DNA from: Aureispira anguillae
GTDB lineage: Bacteria > Bacteroidota > Bacteroidia > Chitinophagales > Saprospiraceae
Assembly (NCBI RefSeq): GCF_026000115.1
Contig: NZ_AP026867.1
Span: 4,273,716-4,337,715 of the forward strand
Direction: 5' to 3'
DNA length: 64,000 nt
Position numbers and translations under genes: made by a program. Position 1 is the first letter of the stretch, and each line of letters begins with the position of its first letter. This document shows positions 43,587-62,326 of the stretch, piece by piece. The notes under the pieces were generated by a model. The model searched no databases, had not been told where the DNA came from, and worked only from the letters and a program-made list of their open reading frames with translations.

Positions 43587-43964
43587 GGGGCTGACTGGAA
43601 TTGACAGCATTGAACGTTCTTTAAGTAAGCATGTCGAGACAGGTGTGATTATCTCGTTAAATATAGCACATAACAACTTTTAAATGGCAATAATAACTAT
43701 GCCATGGCTGCCTAATCACAAAGTGATTTAGACACCATTGCGACCTACGCTTGACGCCTAATACACAGCGTACCTCGCATCAACCAACCTCTTAGGCTAG
43801 TTTAGAATGCGTGTCTCCGTAATTCAAAATGAATCAAGAAGAGACTGGAGTGGTAACTCGTTTGTCCTTAGACCTATTACTGCTTGAGATTCGACTAATG
43901 ACTAAACATGTAGAAAGCTTATTGATGCTTTGACTGGACGAGGGTTCGACTCCCTCCAGCTCCA
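43587..43964 (+). ncRNA. ssrA: tmRNA
   Basis: The tRNA-like ends pair as GGGGCTG (43587-43593) with CAGCTCC (43957-43963), with T arm GGGTTCGACTCCC. The tag frame is at 43686-43715 and reads GNNNYAMAA then TAA, close to the YALAA/YAMAA tags of other Bacteroidota. The gene is about 378 nt and does not encode the 3' CCA. It rescues stalled ribosomes and tags the nascent chain for proteolysis. Its 3' end is used as an integration site; a hairpin AAAACTCT/AGAGTTTT at 43976-43998, brought by the island, may now end its transcript. Confidence 0.95.
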
Positions 43965-43966
43965 CT
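43951..43966 (+). other. Attachment site, left (in ssrA 3' end)
   Basis: TCCCTCCAGCTCCACT, the last part of the tmRNA gene, is repeated exactly at 58175-58190 in the same orientation, defining the ends of the integrated island. Confidence 0.8.
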
Positions 43967-44009
43967 AGTATATATAAAACTCTAATTTCCAGAGTTTTAC
44001 ATATTACAT

Positions 44010-44039
44010 TGAGACATAATATAAATATCTTCTGTCTCA
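44010..44039. promoter_or_regulatory. TGAGACA sites at the left island end
   Basis: TGAGACA at 44010-44016 and its complement TGTCTCA at 44033-44039, matching three copies near the right end. Candidate arm-type recombinase or excisionase sites. Confidence 0.45.
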
Positions 44040-44086
44040 TTGTTTTTTTGCTTTATATGCTATGGCGTAAAAAAGTTAAAAGAACA

Positions 44087-45136
44087 ATGATAAAAAAAAG
44101 TACGCCTAAGATATATACAGGCAAAAATTCTCTCTCTATCCGCTGGTTTGTTTACTACTTAGATGAAAAGGGCAAACGAATCAAAAAATACGGTGACATC
44201 AACAAATATTCTACCCTAAAAGGGCGAAAAGCAGCTGCGCAGCGCCTAATTGATGAAATTCTACAAGTACACCTTAAAAAGTCTAATAAGAGCCTTTCAC
44301 AAAAGATTTATGAAGAGTTAGAAAACAGGAAACCTACTTGGCGACCTAAAACCTACCAATGTAAAAAATCCAAGATTGATATTTTTCTAAAATGGATGCA
44401 GCGCAAAAAATGGACGGAAGACAATGTTTATCAATTTTTCTTTGAATACCTTACCAAAGAAAAGAGAGTAGCTCCAACGACTTATAATGATTATATCCGT
44501 TGCATTACTCAAGCACTTGGCTGGTGCGATCAACAGCAGCTCATGGAAGCCATTGAAAAACGAAAAGCTTCACCGACTCCAGCGGCATACTTTACCCAGA
44601 GCCAAAGAACATTTCTTAGCAATGCCATAAAAAATAGTAATCCTAATTTGTGGTTTTTTGTGCAGTTTGTGTATTACTGCTTTCTTCGACCTCGTGCGGA
44701 GCTGCGTTTGCTCAAGGTCGGGGACGTGATTTTGGAAGAACAAAAGATCTTAGTTCCTGCCAATATTGCCAAGAATAAAAAACAACAGTATGTGGCCATT
44801 CCAAACGCTTTCTTTCCTACAGTTGAGAAAAAGATAAGGAATCGCAACCCAAACGAATATTTGTTTCCTGGTAATCATTATTTGTCTCCTACTGGTATGA
44901 ATACTTTTGGACGACAACACAGAGAGTTGTTAAAAGAATTGGGTTTTGATACTAGCCGTTATAAGTTGTACTCCTGGAAACATACGGGAGCTGTTGCTGC
45001 GGTTAAGGCTGGTATTCATATTAAGCAGCTGCAAATTCAATTGCGCCATCATTCATTGGATCAGGTGGACGAATACTTGAGGCAATTGGGCGTTTCTGAT
45101 TTGGGGGATCTACGAGATAATTTTCCTTGTATTTAG
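44087..45136 (+). CDS. Tyrosine recombinase (island integrase 1)
   Basis: From the ATG at 44087 the protein has 349 residues; an ATG at 44057 and a TTG at 44009 are also in frame. An N-terminal SAM-like core-binding domain (about residues 60-160) precedes the catalytic domain with Arg in FLRPRAEL, Lys in KNKKQQYV, a box II reading YSWKHTG, the LRHHS His and Tyr in VDEYL. Box II lacks the usual H-x-x-R (K replaces R). It starts 120 bp after the att site in ssrA, the classic position of an island integrase. Confidence 0.88.
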   Translation: MIKKSTPKIYTGKNSLSIRWFVYYLDEKGKRIKKYGDINKYSTLKGRKAAAQRLIDEILQVHLKKSNKSLSQKIYEELENRKPTWRPKTYQCKKSKIDIFLKWMQRKKWTEDNVYQFFFEYLTKEKRVAPTTYNDYIRCITQALGWCDQQQLMEAIEKRKASPTPAAYFTQSQRTFLSNAIKNSNPNLWFFVQFVYYCFLRPRAELRLLKVGDVILEEQKILVPANIAKNKKQQYVAIPNAFFPTVEKKIRNRNPNEYLFPGNHYLSPTGMNTFGRQHRELLKELGFDTSRYKLYSWKHTGAVAAVKAGIHIKQLQIQLRHHSLDQVDEYLRQLGVSDLGDLRDNFPCI

Positions 45137-45140
45137 AATG

Positions 45141-45179
45141 TAACAAGCTCCAAAGGGTAATTCCCTTTGGAGCTTGTTA
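45141..45179 (+). terminator. Terminator of integrase 1
   Basis: TAACAAGCTCCAAAGGG and CCCTTTGGAGCTTGTTA form a perfect 17-bp stem just after the stop codon, followed by TATTTTAGTTTT. Confidence 0.85.
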
Positions 45180-45255
45180 TATTTTAGTTTTAATAAAGTA
45201 ATGATCTAGAACTTATATTGTATATTTAATTATTATAAATTATCAAACAACACTT

Positions 45256-48200
45256 ATGGAAGACTTTATCCCTCTTTGGGAAATTAGAAAGTACTTAGCT
45301 TACTATACATATCATGTAATTATGGAGTCTAAATCAGGAAATACAGATATGAGTAAACGTGGTGAAATTTTATTAATTCCAATTGTGAATAAGATTTTTA
45401 AAAAAAAATTTATTCATCTTGAGGAAATACAAAAGAATTATCCTGCAATAGACCTAGGCTCTGAAAATAAAGAAATTGGCATTCAAGTAACTTGTGAAAC
45501 TGGCTACTCCAAAATAAAAAAAACGTTAAAAACACATCTTAACAATAGAGTATTTGAAGATTACCCTATTCTATATCATATTATAATTGACCCTAAGTCA
45601 AAAATTAATAAAACTAATGATGATATTAATTTTTTCATCGAAGAAGAAGCTTCTAGATTAGGTATAGTGCCATCTCCTAATATAAGTTTCAAAAAAGAAC
45701 ATATATGGAATATCACTGATCTTAGTAAAAAGATTGACGAAAGATGTAATAAACAGGAAATAAAAGCAATTCGGGACTACTTAAAAGATCAATATGGTTC
45801 AGTAACAAAATTACCTACTTTTGATGATATAATAATACCATATCAAGTAGCATTTGAAGATCAACTAAAGCAATCAAAGGATTTTCCTAATCAATTTAAC
45901 AGTACATTTTATGGAAGAGAACAAGAAATAGAAAGTATAAAAAAGTTTATTAACTCTAATAAAAAAGTTTTATCTATTGTTGGGGATGGAGGTTATGGAA
46001 AAACTAGGCTTTGTATCCAATTCTTCAAAGTAATAGTAGATAAAATGGAAAATCAAGAAGCATTCATTCTTAATGATGGTGCATTTGCATGTTTAGATTT
46101 TTCAGAACAAATAAAATCTAAAAATAATATTATTATCCTATTAGACGATGCACACAAAAAACTTCACATTTTAAATGATGTAATAGCTACTGTTAATAGG
46201 CTTGAAAATGTAAAAATCATCCTTACTATTAGAAAAGCTACTTATAGCAAAACAATACATTCCATATCTTCTCACTATCGAGATATAGAAAAAATACCTA
46301 TAGAAAGGCTCAACTATGATAACACCCTAAATTTATTCAAATCTCAAATTCCAAATATCAGAAAAATAGATCTTTCTAGGTTAGCTGAAAAATCGAAAGG
46401 AGTACCAATTGTAATCTTAGGCTTATGTCAATTAGCACTAAAAGGTAAACATTCATTTGAATTATCTGAAGAAGATAATTTTATTGAATTCGTCAAGGAG
46501 TCAAAAAGACAAGTCATAGAAGACGTTTATGACTCTACTTACATTGATAAAATAAAAATAAATAAAACAATTCAATTATTAAGTTTGGTTTCTCCTATCA
46601 AAATTGAAGAACTAAAACTGATAGCTAAGATAAATGAAATTTCACTTGAAGATTGCGAAATTATTATTGATGAATTATCAAAATTTGACTTTATATCTAA
46701 AGATACACATATAACAATTAAGCCAGATCCTTATAGTGATATAATACTTTTAGATGCAATATCTAGGATTAAATACATCCTAAAAAGAAATGATATAGAT
46801 TCCTTTAGAGAAAGAATTATTACAAATCTAATAGAAGTAGAACACTCTGAAAAGCTAGATATTAACGTAGACAGTATAGCACTTGAATTTGTCAACTCAA
46901 TTAATAGTATTAATTTAAACTCTATTGATGAATTAAAATTACTCAAGAACAATTTAGATACATTATCGTTTTTTGCTTATAAAAAGACACAAATTACCAC
47001 TAAGGCTTTACGTTGTATATTTGATATAAGTCATAAACAAACAACCTTTTGGAGCAAAAGTCAATCAATTTGGCAAGAATATATTTTGACAGATATTCAT
47101 AACAAAATTGATTTACTTTTTTCTATTATATTTTTGAATATAGTAGACAATAGTAGCCTTAATTCTACCTTTCAGTTATTATGTGACTATTCTTTTTGTA
47201 GGAAAAACGTTGATTTAATTGAAAAAGTATTCAGATATAGAGAATATGATTTTAAAAATTGGGGATACTCTCCTTTAGTTGTTTGTCAAAGACAGCAATT
47301 TCTTGTAAAAAAATTAACCTTAATTTTAAAAAGAGAAGACACACAAAACACACATAAAGAACTCATACTAAAAGGCATAGAAACATTATTAAAATTAGAT
47401 TTTTCATTAGAAGAGAGTTTTGATAAATACACAATGAAGTTTAGTTTTGGTAGAGGAAAAGTTCCTTTTACCCCAGTTACAAAAAAACTACGAGTTGATA
47501 CAATTACCCTGCTAATTTCATTACACAAAACTTATAGAGAAAAAGATAGAAAATTTGGATTATTAGTCTATAAAAAAATACTTCACACTCTACGCTATTA
47601 TAGAGTCCCTCATCAGGAAAATTCAGAATTTGACAGAAGTAACGAGGTAAAATTAGTAAATGCATTTTTACTTGAAACCTTAGAAAAGGCCCCTTCTCCA
47701 GAAGAAAAAAATCTATTAATTCAGCATTTAAACATGTTTACTAATAAGGATCTAAAGCCAGAGTATAGTAGTATTCATTCTCTACTCCTAACAAAAGCAA
47801 AGATTACTACTTCAATTAAAGGTGAATTAGAACTGATTCTATTAAATGATTATTCCCATAATAAAAAAAATGCTTTTCAAAAACTTACTGAACTATCAAA
47901 AAAATATAAAAACTGGTCGCTTTTTTATAAAGATATAATTTCAATAGTTTTAGACTTTGATATTAACCAATTTAAAATTAATCAAATTATTGATTTTTTA
48001 AACTCCTATCACCCTGATGTATCTCGAAAATTCTTTAGTTTCATTTTTAACAATCATCAGAATTTAATGAGCACATTTGCTCATCTTATCCAAGCTAATT
48101 ATCAGGATAAAAAATACTTTTATAGCTTAATCGAATCTATTTGGAAGATAAATACAGAAGATTCAAAAACATTAGTTATTTTCTTACTAGTTTATGGTAG

Positions 48201-49167
48201 AAATCAAGATTATTCTTTCTATGAGTTAAGGGATTTTAAATACATAGAATACGTAATTCAAAATCAAAATACCAACTCAATTAAAAATTTAGCACACACA
48301 CTACATCAATATATTTATATTGATGTCAATAAAACACTTAGCCTAATAAGCATTTTATTAAAAAATCTGCCTGACATAGATAGTGTTAGTTTTTTATTAA
48401 AGTCATTATTTAAAGACTCAAATATCATATCCCAATATGCCAATGAACTTAGAGAATTTATATTCAAAGAAACACTCCACATTTCTCTTGATACACAATA
48501 TTCTAATTACATTTTAGTCTTCCTTGAAAATCAATTTAGTTTCAACTCTTTATTAAAATATTTAATTCAAAAAATTAATCTATTCCAAAAGGAAAATACA
48601 GTAATTGGTTTGAACTTTTATAGTAAATATCAAAATAGATTATTAACTGACAAGCAAAAAGAATCTAATTTTTTAACTGTATTAAATTGGTATGGGAATT
48701 TAAAAAACCCTTCTAACTTTTTACATAAACAACTAGTTGATTTTTTTAAACCTTCATCCCTATTTTCAGAATCATTAAAAAAAGAAGCAACAACTGTTAT
48801 TAATTCTAAAAAAAATAATTACAATTTTTTAGTAACTTATTGCCATGGGCTAACTGTTTTTGAACATAAAAATAAAGAAATACTTTTATTTCTAATTGAA
48901 GCAGGAAACCTCCTTATACAACACCCGAACTACAAACCTCATGACATTGAAAAAATATTTGGATATTCATTTATACACAATCTAAGTGGTAAATCAAAAA
49001 CTAATAGAGGAGCTTTTCCTCATGATATTACTAAGTCTAAATTATTAACAGATCTAATCAGTAATATAGAAATGGAATTTGATATTCAATCGATATTTAA
49101 TCAAGCTTTAGATGCAGTTAATAAAAACATAAATGAAGATATAAATGAAGATAAAATTGATTGGTAA
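45256..49167 (+). CDS. SMEK-domain STAND NTPase, probable anti-phage protein
   Basis: A 1303-residue protein, much more AT-rich than the backbone genes. Residues 1-165 match the SMEK domain, a putative restriction-endonuclease-like fold (E37, PAIDLG with D66, IGIQVT with Q77). A STAND-type P-loop NTPase follows: Walker A GDGGYGKT (243-250), Walker B IIILLDD (292-298), then winged-helix-like and long alpha-helical repeat regions to the C-terminus. Proteins with a nuclease-like head, STAND ATPase and helical sensor are typical of Avs-like defence. The helical part would sense a phage protein and the head would act on nucleic acid (inference). It is monocistronic cargo of the island. Confidence 0.75.
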   Translation: MEDFIPLWEIRKYLAYYTYHVIMESKSGNTDMSKRGEILLIPIVNKIFKKKFIHLEEIQKNYPAIDLGSENKEIGIQVTCETGYSKIKKTLKTHLNNRVFEDYPILYHIIIDPKSKINKTNDDINFFIEEEASRLGIVPSPNISFKKEHIWNITDLSKKIDERCNKQEIKAIRDYLKDQYGSVTKLPTFDDIIIPYQVAFEDQLKQSKDFPNQFNSTFYGREQEIESIKKFINSNKKVLSIVGDGGYGKTRLCIQFFKVIVDKMENQEAFILNDGAFACLDFSEQIKSKNNIIILLDDAHKKLHILNDVIATVNRLENVKIILTIRKATYSKTIHSISSHYRDIEKIPIERLNYDNTLNLFKSQIPNIRKIDLSRLAEKSKGVPIVILGLCQLALKGKHSFELSEEDNFIEFVKESKRQVIEDVYDSTYIDKIKINKTIQLLSLVSPIKIEELKLIAKINEISLEDCEIIIDELSKFDFISKDTHITIKPDPYSDIILLDAISRIKYILKRNDIDSFRERIITNLIEVEHSEKLDINVDSIALEFVNSINSINLNSIDELKLLKNNLDTLSFFAYKKTQITTKALRCIFDISHKQTTFWSKSQSIWQEYILTDIHNKIDLLFSIIFLNIVDNSSLNSTFQLLCDYSFCRKNVDLIEKVFRYREYDFKNWGYSPLVVCQRQQFLVKKLTLILKREDTQNTHKELILKGIETLLKLDFSLEESFDKYTMKFSFGRGKVPFTPVTKKLRVDTITLLISLHKTYREKDRKFGLLVYKKILHTLRYYRVPHQENSEFDRSNEVKLVNAFLLETLEKAPSPEEKNLLIQHLNMFTNKDLKPEYSSIHSLLLTKAKITTSIKGELELILLNDYSHNKKNAFQKLTELSKKYKNWSLFYKDIISIVLDFDINQFKINQIIDFLNSYHPDVSRKFFSFIFNNHQNLMSTFAHLIQANYQDKKYFYSLIESIWKINTEDSKTLVIFLLVYGRNQDYSFYELRDFKYIEYVIQNQNTNSIKNLAHTLHQYIYIDVNKTLSLISILLKNLPDIDSVSFLLKSLFKDSNIISQYANELREFIFKETLHISLDTQYSNYILVFLENQFSFNSLLKYLIQKINLFQKENTVIGLNFYSKYQNRLLTDKQKESNFLTVLNWYGNLKNPSNFLHKQLVDFFKPSSLFSESLKKEATTVINSKKNNYNFLVTYCHGLTVFEHKNKEILLFLIEAGNLLIQHPNYKPHDIEKIFGYSFIHNLSGKSKTNRGAFPHDITKSKLLTDLISNIEMEFDIQSIFNQALDAVNKNINEDINEDKIDW

Positions 49168-49175
49168 GTACAAAA

Positions 49176-49203
49176 AAGCCACCTCAAATGAGATGGCTTA
49201 AAA
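49176..49203. terminator. Terminator between SMEK-STAND gene and the minus-strand operon
   Basis: AAGCCACCTC and GAGATGGCTT pair (one mismatch) with A runs on both sides, between convergent genes. Confidence 0.6.
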
Positions 49204-49231: not shown

Positions 49232-49663
49232 CTAACTATCGCTTTTATGTTCTCCTACTTTATCAAATACAGATTGTTCCTGGTACGCATTTAAAATTCG
49301 CTTACGCTGCTTTTTTTCAACCTTCGATAGTTTCCTTGGTTTGTAATTGGTATTTAGTTGAGGTTGAAAGAAATTTCTTAAATAGATGTATGTCATTGTT
49401 GACATATAGATATGAGAGCTGGTCAATATTTCAAAACTAAAATCTTTATTAGACTCCTGTACTAGCTTGCCTTGGCTCTGAAATAAGCGCATTATCGTAC
49501 AATATAAGTTGATACTTCTACCAATGTACAAAACCTCCTTTTCCCCTTTTTTACGAATTAAAAAAATACCTGCTATGGCTCTAAATCTGCCGAGCTGTTC
49601 TTGTTCAATTGGTTCATGAACGGTTATTGTATTTGTCTCTATTATTCTAAGTGGCTCATTCAT
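49232..49663 (-). CDS. GIY-YIG-like protein
   Basis: A 143-residue protein. GIFLIRKKG...VLYIGRSINLY (about residues 32-55) matches the GIY-YIG nuclease core with its Arg, and FFQPQLNTNY resembles the closing F-x-P-x-L-N. The catalytic Glu expected roughly nine residues before that Pro appears to be missing (the helix reads MTYIYLRNFF). It may be an inactive DNA-binding version or a diverged nuclease. The tail is basic and charged. It is the last gene of the island's minus-strand operon, 4 bp after its neighbour. Confidence 0.65.
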   Translation of the reverse strand: MNEPLRIIETNTITVHEPIEQEQLGRFRAIAGIFLIRKKGEKEVLYIGRSINLYCTIMRLFQSQGKLVQESNKDFSFEILTSSHIYMSTMTYIYLRNFFQPQLNTNYKPRKLSKVEKKQRKRILNAYQEQSVFDKVGEHKSDS

Positions 49664-49667
49664 TTTA

Positions 49668-50120
49668 TTACAATTTTACGGTTTTTATAAAATCTTGGAG
49701 GTTCACTAGTTCGCTATTCGTTGACGTTATTTTGTGCAACTCTAATTTTTGCTTTCGATTATAGCGAATCAACATATAATCTTTTTGAAGCATAGAAATA
49801 AACAGCGCTTCCATTTTAGACCCTCCCAACTGTGCTAAAATTTGCTTCTTTAATAAATCAGGTGCTTGCTCCAGTCGTGTTGTTAGCATCTCACTAAAAA
49901 ACGCTCCAGCATCTAAGCAATAAACCTCTTTGGCTTGCGCTGTAATTACCTGACCAATTAGTTTGCCTTCTGCTACTTTAAACAATAAACTCAGTCCATA
50001 AGCAGAAATATTTTGCTCTTTTGAAACATAAGCTAACAACTCCCCTGCCTTGCTCATTAAGTCTTGTTCTATGACTGGCGCTTGTGTCTTCAGATGATTT
50101 TCTAAAATTGTTCTTACCAT
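49668..50120 (-). CDS. Unknown island protein, 150 residues
   Basis: I do not recognise it. It is a soluble alpha/beta protein without signal peptide, with a central EAK-rich helix and a C-terminal beta stretch around MLIRYNRKQKLELHKI. It lies between the Glu-rich membrane protein (49 bp upstream) and the GIY-YIG-like gene (4 bp downstream), so it is part of the same operon. A structural or regulatory role in the element is possible. Confidence 0.6.
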   Translation of the reverse strand: MVRTILENHLKTQAPVIEQDLMSKAGELLAYVSKEQNISAYGLSLLFKVAEGKLIGQVITAQAKEVYCLDAGAFFSEMLTTRLEQAPDLLKKQILAQLGGSKMEALFISMLQKDYMLIRYNRKQKLELHKITSTNSELVNLQDFIKTVKL

Positions 50121-50169
50121 ACTATTTTTGTGATGTGTGATTTATAAATGATTGGCGGTTCTAACTCAG

Positions 50170-51192
50170 TTATTCACCATATATAATTTCTCTAATTTCT
50201 GCATTACTGTACCCTTTTTCCAGTAGGGCTAATAGTTCAGCACTGGGATATTCATCTGCCAAATCAACATTGGCATACTCCCCATCACTCAAGCGGCGAT
50301 AAGTACCATTTGCATGGCGACCAAATAACCGTCTGCCTGATTGATATTCTTTTGTTGTGGTATAATCTACCGCTGGGGCTGGCTGTTCTTCCTCGCTTTG
50401 CTCTCCTATTGATTCCTGGTCCATTAAGTTTTCTGCTGTATTGGGGGTGATGCTTGGTTTATTTTTTCCTTCTCGTATTAATTTGAAGCGTTGAAAACCT
50501 GCCAAACTTAAAGAAGGGAGTAACCACATACCTACTGCTATCAAAAAAGTTTGTGTGGGACTAGGCGGCTTAATTCCGATTTCTTGTATATAGTTTTTAG
50601 TCGCATTGATGAGCGCCTTTTTTGCTTTTGTATCTGAAGCATAAAACGCCGCTTCTTTGCCACCAATTGCAGCACACAATTGGGCTTTAGAATTATCTAA
50701 ATAATCCATGACCGCTACCCCCAATGAAGCCAATGTATCTAAGTTTTTTTGGCTCTCGCCTGTACTCTCTTCGATCTGCTCTTCTACTGTTCTATCTTCT
50801 GGCCCTTCTATACTATTTAACAAAGGGTCTTCCTCTTCTTCTTCTTCCTCCTCCTCTGCTCTTTTGTCTTCATTCATCATATAATCCCACAAAGGGTCTT
50901 CCTCCTCTTCTATCGTTTTTTCTTCCGTTTTTTCTGAATTGTCTGAAACATTGTTTGAAGTTTTTTTTTCGATTGTTTCTGCATTGTTTGAAGCTTGTGT
51001 GGAATCCTGTTTTTCTGCTGTTTTTATTTGTTTTTGGGCTGTATTCGCTGTTTCTACCTCTGTTTGAGGTATTGTTTGAGATTCTGTTTGAGGTTCTGTT
51101 TGAAACGTTGTTTCAACTCTTGTTTCTTGTGGTTTTTCTTCCCTTATTTCTGACTGTAATTGTTTCACTAATGAATCCATTTTAAAGCGCAT
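50170..51192 (-). CDS. Unknown low-complexity island protein with a membrane segment
   Basis: A 340-residue protein. The first 140 residues are Gln/Thr/Glu-rich with short repeats (TEPQTESQTIPQTEVE) and acidic runs of Glu; a helical region follows, then one hydrophobic segment (TFLIAVGMWLLPSLSLA, near residues 210-226), and a C-terminal part with YQSGRRLFGRHANGTYRRL. No family recognised. Its start overlaps the end of the 86-residue gene by 11 bp, indicating coupling. Confidence 0.6.
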   Translation of the reverse strand: MRFKMDSLVKQLQSEIREEKPQETRVETTFQTEPQTESQTIPQTEVETANTAQKQIKTAEKQDSTQASNNAETIEKKTSNNVSDNSEKTEEKTIEEEEDPLWDYMMNEDKRAEEEEEEEEEDPLLNSIEGPEDRTVEEQIEESTGESQKNLDTLASLGVAVMDYLDNSKAQLCAAIGGKEAAFYASDTKAKKALINATKNYIQEIGIKPPSPTQTFLIAVGMWLLPSLSLAGFQRFKLIREGKNKPSITPNTAENLMDQESIGEQSEEEQPAPAVDYTTTKEYQSGRRLFGRHANGTYRRLSDGEYANVDLADEYPSAELLALLEKGYSNAEIREIIYGE

Positions 51193-51442
51193 TTATTTGA
51201 TGGTACAATGATTTTAATTCCGTTAAGCTACTGCTTAGAGAGGCATGTGTAATGATTTGCTGAACCCCTTGATCAGGATCAGCACTCAACGAATCTGTAT
51301 CAACTATTAATTCTCTGCTTAATAGTTCTTGAGCCTGTTCTTGTAGCCCGTTCATTTGGGCTTTAATCAGTCTTAGTACAATACTTTTATCAATTAATGG
51401 TGGTTGGTCGCTCTTTCCTTGAGCGGTATTCTTTGAAGGCAT
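51182..51442 (-). CDS. Unknown small island protein, 86 residues
   Basis: A small, mostly helical protein with no recognised domain. It overlaps the next gene by 11 bp. It is separated from the primase-helicase gene by 301 bp, in which GCAAACAGGA (51547-51556) and TCCTGTTTGC (51608-51617) form an inverted repeat that could be an operator for this downstream set of genes; no clear promoter box is visible. Confidence 0.55.
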   Translation of the reverse strand: MPSKNTAQGKSDQPPLIDKSIVLRLIKAQMNGLQEQAQELLSRELIVDTDSLSADPDQGVQQIITHASLSSSLTELKSLYHQINAL

Positions 51443-51743: not shown

Positions 51744-54700
51744 TTACTTTTTGTTCTTTTTTTCTTTTCCTTTCTTCAGTAGTGCTGCTTTTTGGGGCTG
51801 AATTCCTTTATATTTTAGCGCCTTATTATAATACTCCAGCTCTTTTTTAGCATTTTCTTGCTGCTCTAAAAGCTTTTTTTGATCTAGTTTCTTTTCGTGA
51901 GTTTCTTGCTGTTCCCAAATTTCATTTTCAGTTGCATGATCTGTTGAAGCTTGCGGCTCATCATGCATACTTAGTCCTAATGCATCATAATCAAATACAA
52001 AGGCAGATGTATTTTTTTTGCCCATTCGAGTACTTTTTAGATAATCTACAAAACTAGGATGTGTTTTTATATAATGGGACAAAGATGATTTGGTCAATCC
52101 ATCCTTGCTAAATTGCCGTTTGTGATGCTCTCTATATAAAGGAAAGGATTTGGAAAAAGACAAATACAATAGACGCTTAGGCTCATCAAATTGTTTATTT
52201 TTCCAACTAAAACGCTCTTCTATTTTATAATCATATTCCTCCACCAACAAGCCAGCACTTGCCAAATATTCGATAATATCCCAGAAGGTGGCCGTTTCTG
52301 TTTCGCTGTGAATTTGGTCGTTTTGGTATAGAATATTTGTGATGCAATTTTTATAAACTTCTTCCATACTGAAGGGAAAAGATACCTTTTCCTTGAGCAA
52401 ATCAAATACCGTTAAAATAGAAGCATAATTTTCTATCAATCGAGTGTCTGCCTTGACCGCTTTTTTTAATTTAGAAAAGGTAAGATTGTATTGTTGCCCA
52501 TAGTTATCTTGGATATGTGGTCTTAATACGCTTAATTTTGCCGTTATATTTATCAATTCCCCATTCTTGCGCATTGCCTTCAATTCATCCGCTAAATTAG
52601 ATTCCTTCTGTGTATACTCTGTTTGTGAAAATGCCAAATTAATAACACGAGTAAACAAAGCATTATCTGAAGTGGGCAACTCTTGCCCCACAAACATACA
52701 AGCAGAATAAACCTCACTAACCAAACTCTTTGTTCCTGTCTTTTGTCCTTTCTCTCGCCCTATTCCATCATAAATGGATTTTAGCCCCTGGATGAATCTC
52801 GAATCTATCGAGTTAAAATATTCCTCACAAAACACCAGGGCATTTCTAGCCAATACCAAACGATTGTAAAAACCAACCTGTGTACCACTATTTAAATTAA
52901 AACCATCCTTGGCAATGCCGAACATATAAGACAGATTTTTTCCCATAAAAGACTTGCCTGTTCCTGGTTGACCAAATAAATTGAGTAAAGGAAAATTTAC
53001 ATAATCATGGATCACATCTCTAAACAAAGCAGCCACATAAAAACAAAGGGCTATTTGTCCTTTGCTTCCATGCACTTTGCAAAAAAGTGTTGACCAATCT
53101 TTGAATGTGATTTTTGAATCTTGATAAGCAAAGTTTTTTTCATCTTTAAACAGTTGACTGGAATCTTTGTAAATTTCGCTAAAGGCTGGCAAAAAATAAC
53201 GCTTATCTTGATAGCTTAAAATACCATAGTTATTGGCAGGAATAAAGCCTTTATCTATCGTATAAATACCATTTCCAAAGGTGTAAAAATTATCTCTATG
53301 ATAACCTAGCACGTCTATTTCATAACAAGTCTTCATTTCATCATAAATCTTGCCTTTGATGCGGTTGTACTGCGCTATATTGCCTGTAAAAAAATAATTA
53401 CCTTCTGCCTCTACCGCTAATCTAAACTTATCTAAACTCACCAAAACAGCTGCCTCTACATCTAAAACAACCTTTTGATTGTATTTATTTAACAACTCAA
53501 ATAGGCGCTTAGGATTGTCTTTTGATTTTAAATGAAATAAAGGCTTAACCACAAAGTTAGATACACAAGTATAACCACCTTTTGCATTAGAGCACCAGTA
53601 TTGATTCCCATCTTCATACATGCCATATTTAAACAAGTCCGCCCGTTGTTTTGAACTTAGACTTTTTTGTTCGCTCTCAAAGTTCAAAGCCCCCATTTTA
53701 TCCCGTAACTGGATGCTTAACACACTTTGTTTTATATCCAATAGTTTCGATACATCACGAATGTAACAATCTCTTACTAGTTCATTTTTTATCTTAGCAA
53801 TCAATTCAATCGCTAATTCACTAATCCGCTGAATGGCAAAATTATCACGGTCTGAGTTTTGAAGCTCATGCTCCAAATACCAATTGATTGCATCTGTTTT
53901 ATTTGTCTTGCAATAAATGGTGAAGCCCTCCGCTCCTATCTCTCTAATGTAACTATCAGGATCTTGTTTTTCAGGTAAAGAGATTATATCTACATGAAGC
54001 CCTAACTCAATCAATATCGGTAAATTTCTTATAGCTGCCTCTATTCCTGCTTTGTCCCCATCGTACAATAAAACAACACGCTCAGCATAGCGATTGATTA
54101 ATTTAGCCTGTTGCTTGCTCAATGATGTTCCTCCAGTGGCTACTGCTCCTAAGAACCCACCATCATACAAACTTAGCACGTCCCAATAGCCCTCCACCAA
54201 ATACATGTTTTTTGTTTTCTTGATCGCTGAAAGTTGTTGAGCCAAGCCATACAAAAGCTGCTCTTTGTGGTAAACTTCGCTTTCGGGGCTGTTTAAATAC
54301 TTGATTTGGTCATCATTCATCGCTCGACCTGCAAAGCCTACTATTGCTTTGCTTGGGTTGTGTATCGGGAACAACACTCTATTTCTATAGGCATCAAAAA
54401 ACCCTTTTTTTCCTTGCTTAATAATGCCTAGTTCCTTTAATATACTGTTGTCTAATTTCAAACTTTTTGTAAAATGCCAGGCTTCAGGCGTTTGACAAAT
54501 TCCAAATGTTTTGACGGTTGATCCCTGTAAACTTCTTTTATCAAATTGAATCTCCCCTTTTAGCTCCTCAGCTCCATGATGGTGGTTATAATAAGCAGAT
54601 GCCAACAAACGATTGTACAATAAATATTGCTCTTTTTTCTGTTGGCGTTTCTTCAGCTGCTCCAGCTGCTCCTCGCTTACATTCTCGGCATATTCAACCG

Positions 54701-54974
54701 CTAAATGATGTACTTTTGCTGCGTATTCTACTGCCTCTAAAAAATCAACTTGTTTGTATTCCATTACAAAACTAATCGGTGTATACGTTTTGCCACAGCT
54801 CCCAAAACAAGTTGCTATATTTTTTGATTTTGAGATTGAAAAAGAAGGCGTTTTTTCTTGGTGGAATGGGCAGCAAAGTTTTGCTTTGCTGCCTTCTTTC
54901 CAATCTGTAAGAGATGAAACAATGGTTTCAATCTCAAACTTTGATTTTAGTTCTTCAATATTTGTAATATACAT
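51744..54974 (-). CDS. Primase-helicase (CHC2 zinc finger, TOPRIM, C-terminal ATPase)
   Basis: A 1076-residue replication protein. N-terminal CHC2-type zinc finger: C35, H38, C56, C60. The DnaG core follows with TOPRIM acids E261 (VEGYWD) and DGDKAG (D305, D307). A long linker leads to a P-loop ATPase with GQPGTGKS (668-675), hydrophobic Walker B ending in EE (ALVFCEEYF) and a TRVINLAF arginine segment, then a basic coiled-coil tail. It is much longer than chromosomal DnaG and resembles primase-helicase fusions of plasmids, phages and satellites. It probably initiates and drives replication of the island. Confidence 0.85.
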   Translation of the reverse strand: MYITNIEELKSKFEIETIVSSLTDWKEGSKAKLCCPFHQEKTPSFSISKSKNIATCFGSCGKTYTPISFVMEYKQVDFLEAVEYAAKVHHLAVEYAENVSEEQLEQLKKRQQKKEQYLLYNRLLASAYYNHHHGAEELKGEIQFDKRSLQGSTVKTFGICQTPEAWHFTKSLKLDNSILKELGIIKQGKKGFFDAYRNRVLFPIHNPSKAIVGFAGRAMNDDQIKYLNSPESEVYHKEQLLYGLAQQLSAIKKTKNMYLVEGYWDVLSLYDGGFLGAVATGGTSLSKQQAKLINRYAERVVLLYDGDKAGIEAAIRNLPILIELGLHVDIISLPEKQDPDSYIREIGAEGFTIYCKTNKTDAINWYLEHELQNSDRDNFAIQRISELAIELIAKIKNELVRDCYIRDVSKLLDIKQSVLSIQLRDKMGALNFESEQKSLSSKQRADLFKYGMYEDGNQYWCSNAKGGYTCVSNFVVKPLFHLKSKDNPKRLFELLNKYNQKVVLDVEAAVLVSLDKFRLAVEAEGNYFFTGNIAQYNRIKGKIYDEMKTCYEIDVLGYHRDNFYTFGNGIYTIDKGFIPANNYGILSYQDKRYFLPAFSEIYKDSSQLFKDEKNFAYQDSKITFKDWSTLFCKVHGSKGQIALCFYVAALFRDVIHDYVNFPLLNLFGQPGTGKSFMGKNLSYMFGIAKDGFNLNSGTQVGFYNRLVLARNALVFCEEYFNSIDSRFIQGLKSIYDGIGREKGQKTGTKSLVSEVYSACMFVGQELPTSDNALFTRVINLAFSQTEYTQKESNLADELKAMRKNGELINITAKLSVLRPHIQDNYGQQYNLTFSKLKKAVKADTRLIENYASILTVFDLLKEKVSFPFSMEEVYKNCITNILYQNDQIHSETETATFWDIIEYLASAGLLVEEYDYKIEERFSWKNKQFDEPKRLLYLSFSKSFPLYREHHKRQFSKDGLTKSSLSHYIKTHPSFVDYLKSTRMGKKNTSAFVFDYDALGLSMHDEPQASTDHATENEIWEQQETHEKKLDQKKLLEQQENAKKELEYYNKALKYKGIQPQKAALLKKGKEKKNKK

Positions 54975-54996: not shown

Positions 54997-56178
54997 TTAT
55001 GCTTTTTTACTCGTGCGTCCTGTGTATTTTTTTCCGTTCCGTTCTTCCCAAGCTGTAATTTTACATTGCTCGGTACAATACGTATGATTCCATGAATTAT
55101 GGATAAACCCCTTTTTACATACAGGACATTTTCTTGTATATTTCACTTCCTTTTCTACTGTCGTACGGCTGCCGTTTTTTTCGGTTGTTGGCTGCTCCTG
55201 GTAATCTATAAATCCAATCTTTTTTTGGTTGAGTACGGGTGCCACTCCTCCCCCTCTAACGGCTGCCGTTACGGCTGGCGTTACTACTGCCGTTGTTGCC
55301 GTTGGTTCCTCATTTTCAACGGCTGCCGTTTCTTCCAAACCTAAGCGCTCTTTTCGGCAATTATCATAGTACCACCAACTAAAACACAAGCACAATAAGA
55401 GCAAGGTTTCAAAGCCTAAAACCGTATATTCTAACTGCTGCCGTAACGTCTGACGTTCTTTCATAACGGCTGCAATTAGCCCAGCTGTGGCGGTGTCTGC
55501 CTCCGCAGTCAATCCCTCATTGGCTGCTGCTAAATTGCGCAACTCTTCTCGTTGCTGAGCAATCAAATCATTGATGCTTTTGTTGTGTTCATCAATCGAG
55601 CGTTGGTCTTCGTGCCTAAGCTTTCCATAATAAAGCCGTGTGGCTCTCAACGTATCTCGTTCCTGTTCTATCGCTGCAATCTGCTGTTGATAATCTGCTT
55701 TAATACTCGCATCACTTTTTAAAATTGGCTCAACCTCTGTTGGCTCTGGTAGCATTAAGTCCGCTACAAAAGAAGCCCCACCATAAGAGATTCCAATACT
55801 AATGCCGACAAAAACGACCGATACCGCAAAAGAAAAGTGCTCAAATTCTCGATATTGAAAAGCAGATTTTAGCACATCATCTAAGGCAATACGTTTAATA
55901 ATTTCAATAACTAGGACAACTACTAATAACAAAGGGATTCTTAACAGCATCGGAACATTGCCAAAGTAATGGTACAACATCAACCCAGCTGTTATTAAAC
56001 TGGCAATTTGAACCGCAAACGCTAAAGCCATCAACGACAAATTGACCAACCAAAAGCGTTTAGAAAAGGTCGTATGCTTGAACTTTTTATCTAACGTAGC
56101 CTCCATACTTTCGGAGGCTATCAAAGAACTTATTCCTTTACGAGCTAAGGAATAAGGATTTTTTATAAAATTTTTCAT
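54997..56178 (-). CDS. Unknown membrane protein with coiled coil and C-terminal zinc ribbon
   Basis: A 393-residue protein with at least four membrane helices (two near residues 48-100, one near 118-140, one near 250-270), a coiled-coil loop of about 90 residues between the third and fourth, an Ala/Thr/Val-rich linker, and a C-terminal CPVCKKGF...YCTEQC zinc ribbon. It precedes the primase-helicase by 22 bp and is presumably cotranscribed. Its coding DNA holds several copies of AACGGCTG (see findings). The role is unknown; tethering of replication to the membrane is speculation. Confidence 0.65.
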   Translation of the reverse strand: MKNFIKNPYSLARKGISSLIASESMEATLDKKFKHTTFSKRFWLVNLSLMALAFAVQIASLITAGLMLYHYFGNVPMLLRIPLLLVVVLVIEIIKRIALDDVLKSAFQYREFEHFSFAVSVVFVGISIGISYGGASFVADLMLPEPTEVEPILKSDASIKADYQQQIAAIEQERDTLRATRLYYGKLRHEDQRSIDEHNKSINDLIAQQREELRNLAAANEGLTAEADTATAGLIAAVMKERQTLRQQLEYTVLGFETLLLLCLCFSWWYYDNCRKERLGLEETAAVENEEPTATTAVVTPAVTAAVRGGGVAPVLNQKKIGFIDYQEQPTTEKNGSRTTVEKEVKYTRKCPVCKKGFIHNSWNHTYCTEQCKITAWEERNGKKYTGRTSKKA

Positions 56179-56933: not shown

Positions 56934-57425
56934 ATGTCTATATCTGAACGTTTTAAATTAATATTGTTTTTAGAAGAAAAAAATGTAAAGCAACTAGCTT
57001 CAGAAATTAATGTTACTCAATCTGCCTTAAATAAAGTAGTTAGAGGAGAAGCAATGCCTAGTTCAAAAATATTAATTCCTCTAGCTCAAAGAGGTATCAA
57101 TGTTAATTGGCTATTGATAGGAAAGGGCGACACTAAACAAGAATCTAAGGAAAACAGGAATCTAAGTCTAAATAAAGATACATTAAGAAAAAGGCTAACA
57201 CCTGAAGAACTTGAGCTAATAGTTAAAAAGCTTCCTAAGAATCAAGAGGTAATTTTTCACACAGAAACAAGTGCTATCGAAAAACTCGAAGCCCAAAATA
57301 AGGCTCTAGAAAAAGAACTTGAAACCAGTTATAAAATGAACAAAATACTGGCTGAAGCTAAAAAAGTTTTAGAAAACCAGATAAAAGACAAAGATAGGAT
57401 CATATCCTTGCTCGAAAAAAAATAA
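56934..57425 (+). CDS. CI-like repressor with coiled-coil tail
   Basis: A 163-residue protein. Residues 1-70 form an XRE/CI-type helix-turn-helix (QLASEINVTQSALNKVVRGE, then NVNWLLIGKG typical of phage repressors). Instead of a LexA-like peptidase, the C-terminus is a coiled coil of about 60 residues, suited to oligomerisation. With no autocleavage domain, induction must come from another signal, for example an anti-repressor of a helper phage (inference). It is the only plus-strand gene of this end of the island. Confidence 0.78.
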   Translation: MSISERFKLILFLEEKNVKQLASEINVTQSALNKVVRGEAMPSSKILIPLAQRGINVNWLLIGKGDTKQESKENRNLSLNKDTLRKRLTPEELELIVKKLPKNQEVIFHTETSAIEKLEAQNKALEKELETSYKMNKILAEAKKVLENQIKDKDRIISLLEKK

Positions 57426-58174: not shown

Positions 58175-58190
58175 TCCCTCCAGCTCCACT
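58175..58190 (+). other. Attachment site, right
   Basis: Exact copy of the 16-bp ssrA end (TCCCTCCAGCTCCACT), preceded by GTTCGACTAT, where ssrA has GTTCGAC. The sequence upstream cannot form the tmRNA T stem, so it is a fragment rather than a second functional end. Confidence 0.8.
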
Positions 58191-60121: not shown

Positions 60122-60793
60122 ATGTTTATATCAGAAAGTAATAGAATTTTGACATTAAATAAATGGGCTTTAAAATTGTTAGATTCAGAGTTGAGTGAGG
60201 TAATGAAAAGAAGACTGAACGCTAGCTCACCTACGATCCCTATCTCTTGTGTGGAAGAAGCTTTAATTCGTGCTTATTCAGGAATGGTAGCGTATACTTT
60301 AAATGATTTTTTGCGTGGCAAAGTCCCCGAATATATTGAGTACAAAGCAAGCTGTCTTTATAATCACAGTAACTTCCTTAGAACAATTCAAAAATTACCT
60401 CTATATAGTTCTGAAAAACCTCTATACAGAGGAACTAAAATACGCAAGGAAACCTTAACGAGAATGCAAAAAAATGGTTTTTATACTGACTTCGCATTTA
60501 TTTCAACGTCTACAGATAAAATTACTCCTAGCGGTCAAGGTGGAGCAATGTGGCATCTAAGAGCTGACTTAAATAATTATCCTGAAGAAGATTATGACTT
60601 AGTTCTATTGACTATATTAAAGCATACTTCAGGTCGGGATATAAGCTTATACAGTGCAGATTCAGATACTGATGGAACAGAAATTCTTTTTATGCCAAAT
60701 ACAAAATTTAGTATTAAGAATACTAAAATAAATAAACAACACGCTAGAGATATTCTTGAAATAGACGTTGAGGAAGTATCAAATATAGTGTAG
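60122..60793 (+). CDS. ADP-ribosyltransferase-like protein
   Basis: A 223-residue protein with the R-S-E pattern of arginine/asparagine-type ADP-ribosyltransferases: LYRGTK (R103), FISTSTD (STS at 128-130), and DGTEILFMPNTKFSI with E177. In active toxins the last motif is E/Q-x-E; here Gly occupies the first position, so activity or target may differ. An N-terminal helical part of about 90 residues precedes the fold, as in VIP2/C3-like and some phage ARTs. No signal peptide is seen, so it acts inside the cell or is delivered by another route. It is a single gene. Confidence 0.7.
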   Translation: MFISESNRILTLNKWALKLLDSELSEVMKRRLNASSPTIPISCVEEALIRAYSGMVAYTLNDFLRGKVPEYIEYKASCLYNHSNFLRTIQKLPLYSSEKPLYRGTKIRKETLTRMQKNGFYTDFAFISTSTDKITPSGQGGAMWHLRADLNNYPEEDYDLVLLTILKHTSGRDISLYSADSDTDGTEILFMPNTKFSIKNTKINKQHARDILEIDVEEVSNIV

Positions 60794-60917
60794 TCGTAAT
60801 TAATTAAGGAGGATTTCAGAAATGTTCATTTTTAAAACATTTCAATTACATTGTTTTTTAAATTTTTCTGATAGCCTCCTCTTTCTAGAAATTTTAAATA
60901 AATAAAAAATATTCCAA

Positions 60918-61874
60918 ATGGATTATATATGTACTTTTCTAAATAGTATACATGGACTAGAACTTAATTTTAATATTGATGATTTTTTATTCGAGGATTT
61001 AAATTTAAAAATTAAAAACGAATCTAAAATAATAGATCAATTTTATAAGTCTCCAATACTTAAAATTACTGGTTCAGCGCAATATCAAAAATCTATCCAA
61101 CTTAAATCTTATTTGTGGTCTGAGTTCCCTGCACCTAAAAAAGATTTTAATGAAAAAATCATACTTGCTCATTTACTAAAACTCAGCACAATTTTTAGTA
61201 ATGCAGCATGGATCGTAAAAGATAATTCAGTAAGGTTTGAACTTGGTCATTTTCAATATACTGATGGAAAATTCGTTACAATTCATTCTAATATTAGGCA
61301 CTCATTGTATACCAATTGCCTTGGAGATAAGGAGGTTACTAATTTTTCAGAACCAGAAATAACTGAGGCAATTAAGTATTTTAATTTTTTCTTCAATTTA
61401 AAGTCAAGCATTGACGACTCTGAGCCTGAAATGACTCATGCACAAGCTAATAGAATTAAAAGAGCTTATTATTTCATTGATTCAGCAAGAACAAGCTTTG
61501 ACATAGGTACCAAGGTATCATTATATTGCTCTGCTTTTGAGTGTTTATTTTCAATATCAAACAGTGAATTAACTCATAGGTTATCAGAGACTGTTGCTAA
61601 TTTTCTAGAAAATTCTTTTACAGAAAAAAAAGATATTTATAATAAAATGAAGAAAATATACAGCCTTAGATCATCCATTACGCATGGTTCAGGTATAAAA
61701 AGAGCATTACTTACAAATAATAGCTTAAAGTTAAAAAAAATAGGACGTGATTGTGATAATATTTTAAGAAGATGTTTAGAGAAAATTATTGCTGACGATA
61801 CTTTAACAAGTATGTATTCAGATAATAATAACGATATAATAACTACCTACTTAACAGACTTAAACTTTAAATAA
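60918..61874 (+). CDS. HEPN-like protein (Apea-HEPN type)
   Basis: A 318-residue protein, very AT-rich. The C-terminal half is helical and contains YSLRSSITHGSG: R251 and H256 form the RxxxxH motif of HEPN ribonucleases in the Apea-type context (R-N/S-x-I-x-H-G). The N-terminal half has no domain I recognise and may be a sensor. HEPN proteins of this kind occur in abortive-infection and other RNA-targeting systems. It lies 124 bp after the ART-like gene. Confidence 0.65.
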   Translation: MDYICTFLNSIHGLELNFNIDDFLFEDLNLKIKNESKIIDQFYKSPILKITGSAQYQKSIQLKSYLWSEFPAPKKDFNEKIILAHLLKLSTIFSNAAWIVKDNSVRFELGHFQYTDGKFVTIHSNIRHSLYTNCLGDKEVTNFSEPEITEAIKYFNFFFNLKSSIDDSEPEMTHAQANRIKRAYYFIDSARTSFDIGTKVSLYCSAFECLFSISNSELTHRLSETVANFLENSFTEKKDIYNKMKKIYSLRSSITHGSGIKRALLTNNSLKLKKIGRDCDNILRRCLEKIIADDTLTSMYSDNNNDIITTYLTDLNFK

Positions 61875-61938
61875 ACAAAAGTATCTTTTAACAAGATTAT
61901 CATAGTTACAACAGATGATTTTTATGGTTTAAAGTAAG

Positions 61939-61973
61939 GCCTCAATAACAATAATTTATTGAGGCTTTTTTTT
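61939..61973 (+). terminator. Terminator of the HEPN-like gene
   Basis: GCCTCAATAA (61939-61948) and TTATTGAGGC (61956-61965) form a perfect 10-bp stem followed by a T run. Confidence 0.8.
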
Positions 61974-62046
61974 TAAAAACTTGTTTTTCTATAAAAACAC
62001 ATTAAATTTATATATAAATTAACTAAAAAATTAAATTATAAAACAT

Positions 62047-62301
62047 ATGATTCAATCAAAACTACAACTACTAGTTGAAGAATTGCGAGATACACTTAAA
62101 CGCAAAGAAGAAGAAGTAGTAAACATTAACAACTCTTACATAAGTAGCTCAATTTCAAACATAAAACAAGAAATTGACACATTTGAAGCATTTACAAAAA
62201 AACAATCAAATGATCCGTTCTTAATGGATCAAATTTTAAAAAACTTTCAAAAAGAGGCTAACGTAATCATAGAAAGAATTAATGAGCTAAAAAACACGTA
62301 A
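62047..62301 (+). CDS. Unknown small coiled-coil protein, 84 residues
   Basis: An almost wholly helical, charged protein (VEELRDTLKRKEEEVV... and NFQKEANVIIERINELK), probably a coiled coil. No family recognised. It starts 82 bp after the preceding terminator and 25 bp before the secreted unknown protein, so those two may be cotranscribed. Confidence 0.5.
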   Translation: MIQSKLQLLVEELRDTLKRKEEEVVNINNSYISSSISNIKQEIDTFEAFTKKQSNDPFLMDQILKNFQKEANVIIERINELKNT

Positions 62302-62326
62302 AGATAATTTAATAAAACATCTTCTT

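What the first reader, a model, noticed from the sequence alone, without database searches (positions are those of the whole stretch)
45256..49167. SMEK-STAND NTPase as sole obvious cargo, a candidate new defence protein
Seen: SMEK-like N-terminus (D66, Q77), Walker A and B, then some 900 residues of helical repeats; AT content far above neighbours; own terminator. Known: STAND ATPases with nuclease heads sense phage proteins (Avs). Inference: an Avs-like anti-phage sensor whose ligand is unknown.
Basis: partly seen in the sequence, partly recalled or inferred. Interest (0 to 1): 0.8.

Follow-up and report, generated by a model that had tools for sequence, protein, structure and literature searches.

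The report
Nuclease-headed immune sensor in satellite slot
A mobile DNA element in an unnamed bacterium carries one large gene that looks like a bacterial immune sensor with a DNA-cutting head, sitting in an exchangeable slot where sister elements carry other defence-like genes.

Summary
The 1303-aa ORF at 45256-49167(+) is real. Its head is a SMEK domain (88.5 bits) keeping all residues invariant in 25 aligned SMEK heads, including E37, D66, Q77 and K86. The AlphaFold head model (pLDDT 91.7) has the alpha-beta-beta-beta-alpha-beta order of PD-(D/E)xK nucleases, and the SMEK profile matches a solved 'Mrr domain' of a pAgo effector (E 2.8e-56); Foldseek found nothing significant. A STAND NTPase follows (GREQE, Walker A/B, GVP); a TIR-headed protein shares that core, and a Herpetosiphon plasmid protein annotated as TPR repeats has the same SMEK-STAND order. 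No Avs model matches: it works like Avs, membership is not shown. Context is the strongest new evidence. The gene fills a slot between two terminator-like hairpins in a 14.2-kb element integrated at ssrA. Three such elements there share long backbone blocks 92-99% identical but hold unrelated slot genes: this one, a PifA-like KAP NTPase, and an HNH/PIN set; three related elements elsewhere hold type I or type III-like restriction-modification genes. With two larger virus-like elements they form a 101-kb tandem array. Best reading: satellite-borne STAND nuclease acting by abortive infection, ligand unknown; activity untested. The 'own terminator' belongs to the backbone.

The parts
43587..43965 (+). 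tmRNA gene (ssrA), integration target
   Evidence: ARAGORN
43951..43966 (+). attL-like 16-bp repeat TCCCTCCAGCTCCACT at the tmRNA 3' end
   Evidence: six same-strand copies in the genome, none for the reversed control pattern
44009..45136 (+). tyrosine recombinase (integrase A), 375 aa
   Evidence: Pfam Phage_integrase 41.8 bits; phrog_1 integrase
45137..45183 (+). left slot edge: terminator-like hairpin behind the integrase; same hairpin in E3 and L049, a different one in E5
   Evidence: sister elements by eye
45256..49167 (+). SMEK-STAND gene, 1303 aa: the only slot gene of element E1
45280..45735 (+). SMEK head, residues 9-160; invariant E37 (45364-45366), D66 (45451-45453), Q77 (45484-45486), K86 (45511-45513)
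45829..46608 (+). STAND NTPase core, residues 192-451; GREQE 220-224, Walker A 243-250, Walker B 292-300, GVP 382-384
   Evidence: NB-ARC 25.2 bits (cut-off 23.5), nSTAND_NTPase5 28.7 (cut-off 34)
46609..49164 (+). C-terminal ~850 residues, presumed sensor; family unknown, helix-rich in a low-confidence model
   Evidence: weak
49176..49199 (-). right slot edge: terminator-like hairpin of the converging minus-strand genes, kept in E1, E3, E5 and L049
   Evidence: sister elements by eye
49232..49663 (-). 143-aa backbone gene, GIY-YIG-like by my reading of the sequence (no profile match)
   Evidence: identical protein in L049
49668..50120 (-). 150-aa backbone gene, unknown
50170..51192 (-). 340-aa backbone gene, unknown
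51182..51442 (-). 86-aa backbone gene, unknown
51744..54974 (-). DnaG-like primase with a further C-terminal part, 1076 aa
   Evidence: TIGR01391 328.6 bits; phrog_6444
54997..56178 (-). 393-aa backbone protein with hydrophobic stretches (by eye)
56934..57425 (+). XRE/HTH regulator, 163 aa
   Evidence: HTH_3 27.7 bits
58175..58190 (+). attR-like repeat of E1, start of the next tandem element E2

Best explanation
The gene is a stand-alone anti-phage (or anti-mobile-element) sensor carried as cargo by a satellite-like integrated element. Shown by sequence: a SMEK head with an intact E/D/Q/K set, a STAND NTPase core with its motifs, and a long C-terminal part. Inferred: the C-terminal part binds a component of an invader; nucleotide exchange lets the NTPase cores oligomerise; the clustered SMEK heads then cut DNA without sequence choice, killing or arresting the cell before the invader multiplies. 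Lys86 probably stands in for the missing lysine of the QxK motif. The gene is exchanged as a unit in a slot between two transcription terminators, so it can be swapped for other defence systems without disturbing the element's own operons.
For: Head: Pfam SMEK_N E 4.8e-25; PADLOC short-Argonaute effector model E 9e-23, residues 9-183; match to PDB 26bh, deposited as the Mrr domain of a Mrr-APAZ pAgo, E 1.7e-7 with the query alone and 2.8e-56 with the 25-head profile; E37, N61, P63, D66, L67, Q77, K86 invariant in 25 heads; model pLDDT 91.7, pTM 0.87, order H31-48, E52-54, E67-69, E74-79, H84-96, E105-110. The Kordia SMEK-APAZ/pAgo pair is reported to have weak collateral DNase activity (PMC12205087, passage). 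Motor: NB-ARC just over cut-off; residues 192-451 are 30% identical to a TIR-headed STAND protein, so one motor goes with two effectors. Architecture: a 1105-aa Herpetosiphon plasmid protein annotated as TPR repeats is colinear with residues 10-256 (24%, E 1e-16 pairwise) and has PAVDL, QVT, GREAE and GLGGIGKT. Context: slot exchange between near-identical backbone blocks; slots of the five other type A elements hold a PifA-like protein (PADLOC 8.6e-55), HNH with defence-model matches (1.2e-28) plus PIN, type I R-M, type III-like R-M, and HsdM with HsdS. A SMEK-NACHT relative in Prevotella lies near a SIR2 gene.
Against: No close full-length relative: apart from the own genome, 1 of 394 phylum genomes (residues 14-222 only) and 2 of 59 relatives (one NTPase-only, one head-only) matched; none in viral contigs or phages. 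The C-terminal 1138 residues matched none of 26 SMEK proteins. No Avs/AVAST model. Foldseek: best E 0.18 in PDB, 0.046 in BFVD. hhalign against 4 Mrr_cat and 2 DUF4365 sequences was not significant. The presumed sensor has no usable model and no family. PADLOC also matched 3 of 10 backbone proteins (primase, XRE, VapE-like) through general homology, so a PADLOC match alone is weak. The E2 slot genes have no PADLOC match.
Confidence: 0.72

Rival explanations
1. Element warfare rather than host defence: the protein mainly senses competing elements or the virus-like type B relatives that use the same ssrA site, and excludes superinfection. Same biochemistry, other target.
For: The slot lies in a mobile element; E1 is followed by a type B element at the same att repeat.
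Against: Type A and B elements coexist in alternation in one genome, so these B elements are not excluded; other slots hold restriction-modification systems.
Confidence: 0.14
2. A non-immune STAND regulator of the element, for instance a receptor that senses a helper virus and triggers excision or replication of the satellite.
For: STAND proteins also serve as regulators (recalled); no packaging ATPase of the type B kind in E1, E3 or E5 and no lysis gene recognised among the E1 proteins scanned, so a helper may be needed.
Against: Sister elements that share the long backbone blocks lack the gene, so the element's cycle does not seem to need it; nuclease-type head with intact residues.
Confidence: 0.07
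3. A degenerate or silent passenger gene.
For: Very AT-rich, no close relatives found.
Against: Open over 1303 codons with every invariant SMEK residue and the STAND motifs kept.
Confidence: 0.05

Closest known systems
Avs1-Avs4 (AVAST) antiviral STAND nucleases
   Same: Order of effector head, STAND NTPase, long C-terminal part; nuclease-type effector (definition from PMC12931631 passages)
   Different: No AVAST model matches at E up to 1; head is SMEK; motor nearest NB-ARC/nSTAND5; ligand unknown
Nuclease-headed STAND proteins in P4-like satellite hotspots (PMC9122126)
   Same: STAND with C-terminal repeats and Mrr_cat, BpuSI_N, TIR or SIR2 heads in an integrase-side hotspot of a satellite (passages)
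   Different: Other bacterial group, other backbone (DnaG-like primase, ssrA site), slot between two terminator-like hairpins, SMEK head
Haur_5149, pHAU01 of Herpetosiphon aurantiacus DSM 785 (ABX07777.1), function untested as far as I know
   Same: SMEK head, linker and STAND motifs colinear over residues 10-256; annotated TPR
   Different: 24% identical, shorter (1105 aa), motor more NB-ARC-like by eye, on a plasmid; no similarity found beyond residue 256
bNACHT25/bNACHT32
   Same: N-terminal PD-(D/E)xK DNase on a STAND motor, DNA degradation on activation (PMC12169576 passages)
   Different: Here no NACHT match is listed at E up to 1
SMEK-APAZ short pAgo systems (SPARDA kind, KjAgo)
   Same: Homologous SMEK head
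   Different: No APAZ-like part, no Argonaute gene recognised in E1; NTPase motor instead of guide-RNA sensing

Membership tests
SMEK domain (PF21941) | Score over curated cut-off | tested here: met
   88.5 bits against 27
SMEK domain (PF21941) | Residues invariant in the family | tested here: met
   E37, N61, P63, D66, L67, Q77, K86 in 25 of 25 heads, the query being one
PD-(D/E)xK nuclease superfamily | alpha-beta-beta-beta-alpha-beta core (recalled definition) | tested here: met
   Order of elements in the pLDDT 91.7 model; coordinates could not be inspected for geometry
PD-(D/E)xK nuclease superfamily | Significant structural or profile match to known members | tested here: inconclusive
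   Sequence match to 26bh, named Mrr domain; Foldseek none significant; hhalign not significant with tiny profiles
PD-(D/E)xK nuclease superfamily | Metal-dependent DNA cleavage | not testable with these tools
   Needs protein
STAND NTPases | hhGRExE, Walker A, Walker B, GxP motifs (list recalled) | tested here: met
   GREQE 220-224, Walker A 243-250, Walker B 292-300, GVP 382-384; NB-ARC 25.2 bits over 23.5
Avs1-5 (AVAST) | Match to AVAST profiles | tested here: not met
   PADLOC scan to E 1 gave only a pAgo-effector model; that PADLOC holds AVAST models is recalled, I did not list them
Avs1-5 (AVAST) | Activation by terminase, portal or another phage protein | not testable with these tools
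   Needs phage assays
Short pAgo/SPARDA | APAZ domain and adjacent short Argonaute | tested here: not met
   Residues 166-1303 matched none of 26 SMEK proteins, 12 of them APAZ-like; no Argonaute among the eight E1-region proteins scanned with Pfam
Phage satellite (P4/PICI kind) | Integrase, replication gene, att sites; no capsid or packaging genes of its own | tested here: inconclusive
   Integrase, primase, att repeats present; no type B ATPase in E1/E3/E5; capsid genes cannot be excluded among unknown ORFs
Phage satellite (P4/PICI kind) | Mobilised by a helper virus | not testable with these tools
   Needs induction experiments

The most novel reading that the evidence does not exclude
Type A elements are a new family of satellites that derive from, and are packaged by, a so far undescribed group of virus-like elements (type B). 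A and B stack alternately at one ssrA site into a 101-kb tandem battery, each unit with an insulated slot holding a different immune module; the SMEK-STAND protein is one interchangeable module, a nuclease-headed sensor whose motor also occurs with a TIR head.
Probability: 0.4. Interest if true: 0.75.

Novelty: new variant of a known kind. Interest (0 to 1): 0.52.

Why it matters
Backbones that are near-identical over long blocks but differ in the slot are a natural exchange experiment: the slot predicts immune function for genes that no profile recognises, and gives a list of further candidates (slots of E2, E4 and E5). If the head is an active nuclease, SMEK is an effector shared by guide-RNA (pAgo) and protein-sensing (STAND) immunity, so one could ask how the same nuclease is switched on by two unrelated sensors.

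Tried and rejected
Avs membership: no profile support. Housekeeping role: 12 of 26 SMEK loci have a pAgo-like gene next door; the other 14 are short, truncated or of unknown setting, two of them beside groEL- or dnaK-like genes by eye. Full-length relatives: none in viral contigs, phages or a single-sequence scan of genome contigs; plasmids gave two matches over residues 13-268 and 9-256 at 24-25% identity, of which I opened the Herpetosiphon one and not the Agrobacterium one. A profile of the NTPase core found only the query among 395 phylum genomes and, in PDB sequences, mostly Clp/Hsp100 and Ras P-loops, no use. The 946-aa SMEK protein of L023 aligns well only in the head and has no Walker A, so it is not a SMEK-STAND. 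Model of residues 171-1303: pLDDT 42, not used for a fold search. Relatives of the primase in viral contigs: none. Script stopped with an error after finding no E1-E2 DNA match; its protein print was repeated. Literature: SMEK with STAND and nuclease gave 2 papers, unrelated by title; 'SMEK domain' 3; SMEK with APAZ 3, one a dental paper. I found no description of such an array, but only two narrow searches aimed at it. Five papers were opened, and only the passages shown were read.
Full report
Observation. The ORF at 45256-49167(+) codes for 1303 aa. Residues 9-160 are a SMEK domain (88.5 bits, cut-off 27), the only one in this 7.79-Mb genome. Residues 192-451 carry GREQE, Walker A, Walker B and GVP motifs and score as NB-ARC (25.2 bits, cut-off 23.5), with nSTAND_NTPase5 below its cut-off. 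The last ~850 residues match no Pfam family. GC is 25.8%.

Head. Twenty-five SMEK heads were aligned: the query and 24 of the 26 loci (L068, cut short, and L076, same plasmid and same gene as L074, left out). All keep E37, N61, P63, D66, L67, Q77 and K86. The AlphaFold model on that alignment has pLDDT 91.7 and the order helix 31-48, strands 52-54, 67-69, 74-79, helix 84-96, strand 105-110. E37 lies in the first of these helices, D66 at the second strand, Q77 in the third strand, K86 in the second helix: the layout of a PD-(D/E)xK site with Q in the third place and a migrated lysine. That reading is inference. A non-significant hhalign comparison puts Q77 on the Q of a DUF4365 QxK (prob 1.2%). 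The profile matches PDB 26bh, named as the Mrr domain of a Kordia Mrr-APAZ pAgo (E 2.8e-56). Foldseek found no significant match in PDB (entries to April 2026; rank 3 is EcoT38I restriction endonuclease at E 0.45) or in BFVD; 26bh is not among the 50 rows shown of 412. hhalign against four Mrr_cat sequences gave nothing.

Partners of the head. Of 26 named-genome loci, 12 have, directly behind an APAZ-like SMEK gene, a gene 44-48% identical (or, in L069, identical) to one Argonaute-like reference. That reference matches Pfam Piwi only below cut-off (20.0 bits, cut-off 28.9, E 4.4e-4). The 26 are a biased sample: one peptide pattern from a four-row alignment was scanned, three loci (L056, L069, L078) re-find rows of that alignment, and L074/L076 are two copies on one plasmid. 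One locus, in Prevotella, is SMEK-NACHT (NACHT 36.1 bits, cut-off 26.7), with AAA_21, DUF4435 and SIR2_2 genes close by. A 1105-aa protein on the Herpetosiphon plasmid pHAU01, annotated as TPR repeats, aligns with residues 10-256 at 24% and has PAVDL, QVT, GREAE, GLGGIGKT and LLIFDN: a SMEK-STAND in another phylum, so the architecture is not unique to this window. In the phylum sample 10 of 395 genomes, own included, have SMEK.

Motor. Residues 192-451 are 30% identical to a 1355-aa TIR protein of a genome of the same family. One motor with two effectors is what a modular immune sensor predicts. The neighbours of that TIR gene, judged by eye only, do not look like defence genes.

Element. The 3' end of the tmRNA gene (43951-43966) recurs at 58175-58190. 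The genome has six copies of this 16-mer, all on one strand within 101 kb, and none of the reversed control. They bound five elements: E1 14.2, E2 28.4, E3 16.4, E4 27.2, E5 14.7 kb. E1, E3 and E5 (type A) share integrase, 143-, 150- and 340-aa genes, primase and a 393-aa protein; E2 and E4 (type B) share another integrase, amidases, a VapE-like protein and a 252-aa P-loop protein that I take, without a profile match to one, for a packaging ATPase. The order is A-B-A-B-A.

Slot. Between integrase and 143-aa gene no DNA match was found among E1, E3 and E5, while the long blocks on either side are 92-99% identical; the last 1-2 kb before attR is more diverged (77-79% or unaligned) except its very end. 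Edges in E1: 1188 (against E5) or 1236 (against E3), and 5216-5222, i.e. about window 45138-45186 and 49166-49172. Both edges are terminator-like hairpins. Contents: E1 SMEK-STAND; E3 a 1058-aa KAP NTPase matching PifA (8.6e-55); E5 an HNH protein matching defence-effector models (1.2e-28), a PIN_12 protein and a 224-aa unknown. Three further elements with primases at least 78% identical, one elsewhere in this genome (L049, at tRNA-Ala, with an identical 143-aa protein but another integrase) and two in a genome of the same genus, hold type I R-M (HsdR, HsdS, HsdM; L049), HsdM with HsdS but no HsdR (L052), and a type III-like methylase plus restriction protein with an unknown between (L051). 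L051 is partly decayed: one stop in the primase match, no 86-, 150- or 340-aa gene, an integrase fragment besides an integrase. So 5 of 5 other type A slots examined hold genes of families tied to defence; the R-M genes were typed with Pfam only. The slots of L053 and L054 (primase 43-47%) lay outside the fetched stretches. Type B slots: E4 NACHT (55.3 bits, cut-off 26.7) plus a pentapeptide protein; E2 an ART-like protein below cut-off and two proteins without a solid match, no PADLOC match. Seven other copies of the type B ATPase exist. In the seven stretches beside them lie Gabija (L084, GajA 5.8e-202, GajB 7.5e-155, between transposases), a PDC-S37-like protein (L085, 1.2e-141), NACHT- or AAA-like proteins below cut-off without PADLOC match (L083, L087), a weak DrmC match (L088), a cluster of which 3 of 7 ORFs were tested without a match (L082), and genes not tested (L086). 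Whether each lies inside its element was not shown. Control: 3 of 10 backbone proteins also had PADLOC matches through general homology.

Place. G429:C65 and the named record CALHDG010000065.1 (uncultured Chitinophagales) have the same length and the same 946-aa SMEK gene, and G429 is given as same order as the window's genome; so that genome is probably Chitinophagales. Its habitat is not known.

Mechanism. Shown: domain order, intact residues, slot exchange. Inferred: ligand binding by the C-terminal part, oligomerisation, indiscriminate DNA cutting, abortive infection, by analogy with Avs1-4 (PMC12931631, passages), bNACHT25 (PMC12169576, passages) and the weak collateral nuclease activity of the Kordia SMEK-APAZ/pAgo pair (PMC12205087, passage). 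Precedent for the setting: P4-like satellites hold defence systems between psu and int, among them STAND proteins with TIR, SIR2, Mrr_cat or BpuSI_N heads (PMC9122126, passages).

Verdict. A probable anti-phage STAND nuclease: a rare head-motor pair in a new kind of carrier, known in principle.

Noticed in passing
window 43951-64000 and G000:C1:4317666-4418569: Five tandem integrated elements at ssrA in A-B-A-B-A order, bounded by six identical 16-bp repeats; two different integrases at the same site.
   Followed up: partly
window 49668-51192 against L050:7080-9575, L053:10202-12673, L054:8186-10789: In L050/L053/L054 a P-loop gene (by eye in L053 and L054) lies between the homologues of the 340-aa and 150-aa genes; in E1 only 49 bp lie there, as if type A arose from such a virus-like element by loss.
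   Followed up: partly
L084:10509-14511: Gabija pair (GajA, GajB) flanked by transposase-like genes next to a type B-like element.
   Followed up: partly
L005:1353-4529: Slot of E3: 1058-aa PifA-like KAP NTPase with N-terminal hydrophobic stretches, on the minus strand.
   Followed up: partly
L008:1460-4398: Slot of E5: PIN_12, 224-aa unknown and HNH genes in a row, a possible undescribed system; a second PIN_12 gene is in E2 at L004:4407-5504.
   Followed up: partly
L006:2001-4365: Slot of E4: short NACHT protein (495 aa) beside a pentapeptide-repeat protein with hydrophobic N-terminal part.
   Followed up: partly
window 60122-62884: Slot of E2: ART-like 223-aa protein (21.2 bits, cut-off 23.4), 318-aa and 185-aa proteins without a solid match, all AT-rich.
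   Followed up: partly
G000:C1, nine places: Nine matches to the type B P-loop protein in one chromosome, two of them with in-frame stops: many related virus-like elements, some decayed.
   Followed up: partly
L098:5977-9294 (pHAU01, Haur_5149): SMEK-STAND protein annotated as TPR repeats in Herpetosiphon aurantiacus, with a gene annotated as RNA-directed DNA polymerase upstream on the other strand.
   Followed up: partly
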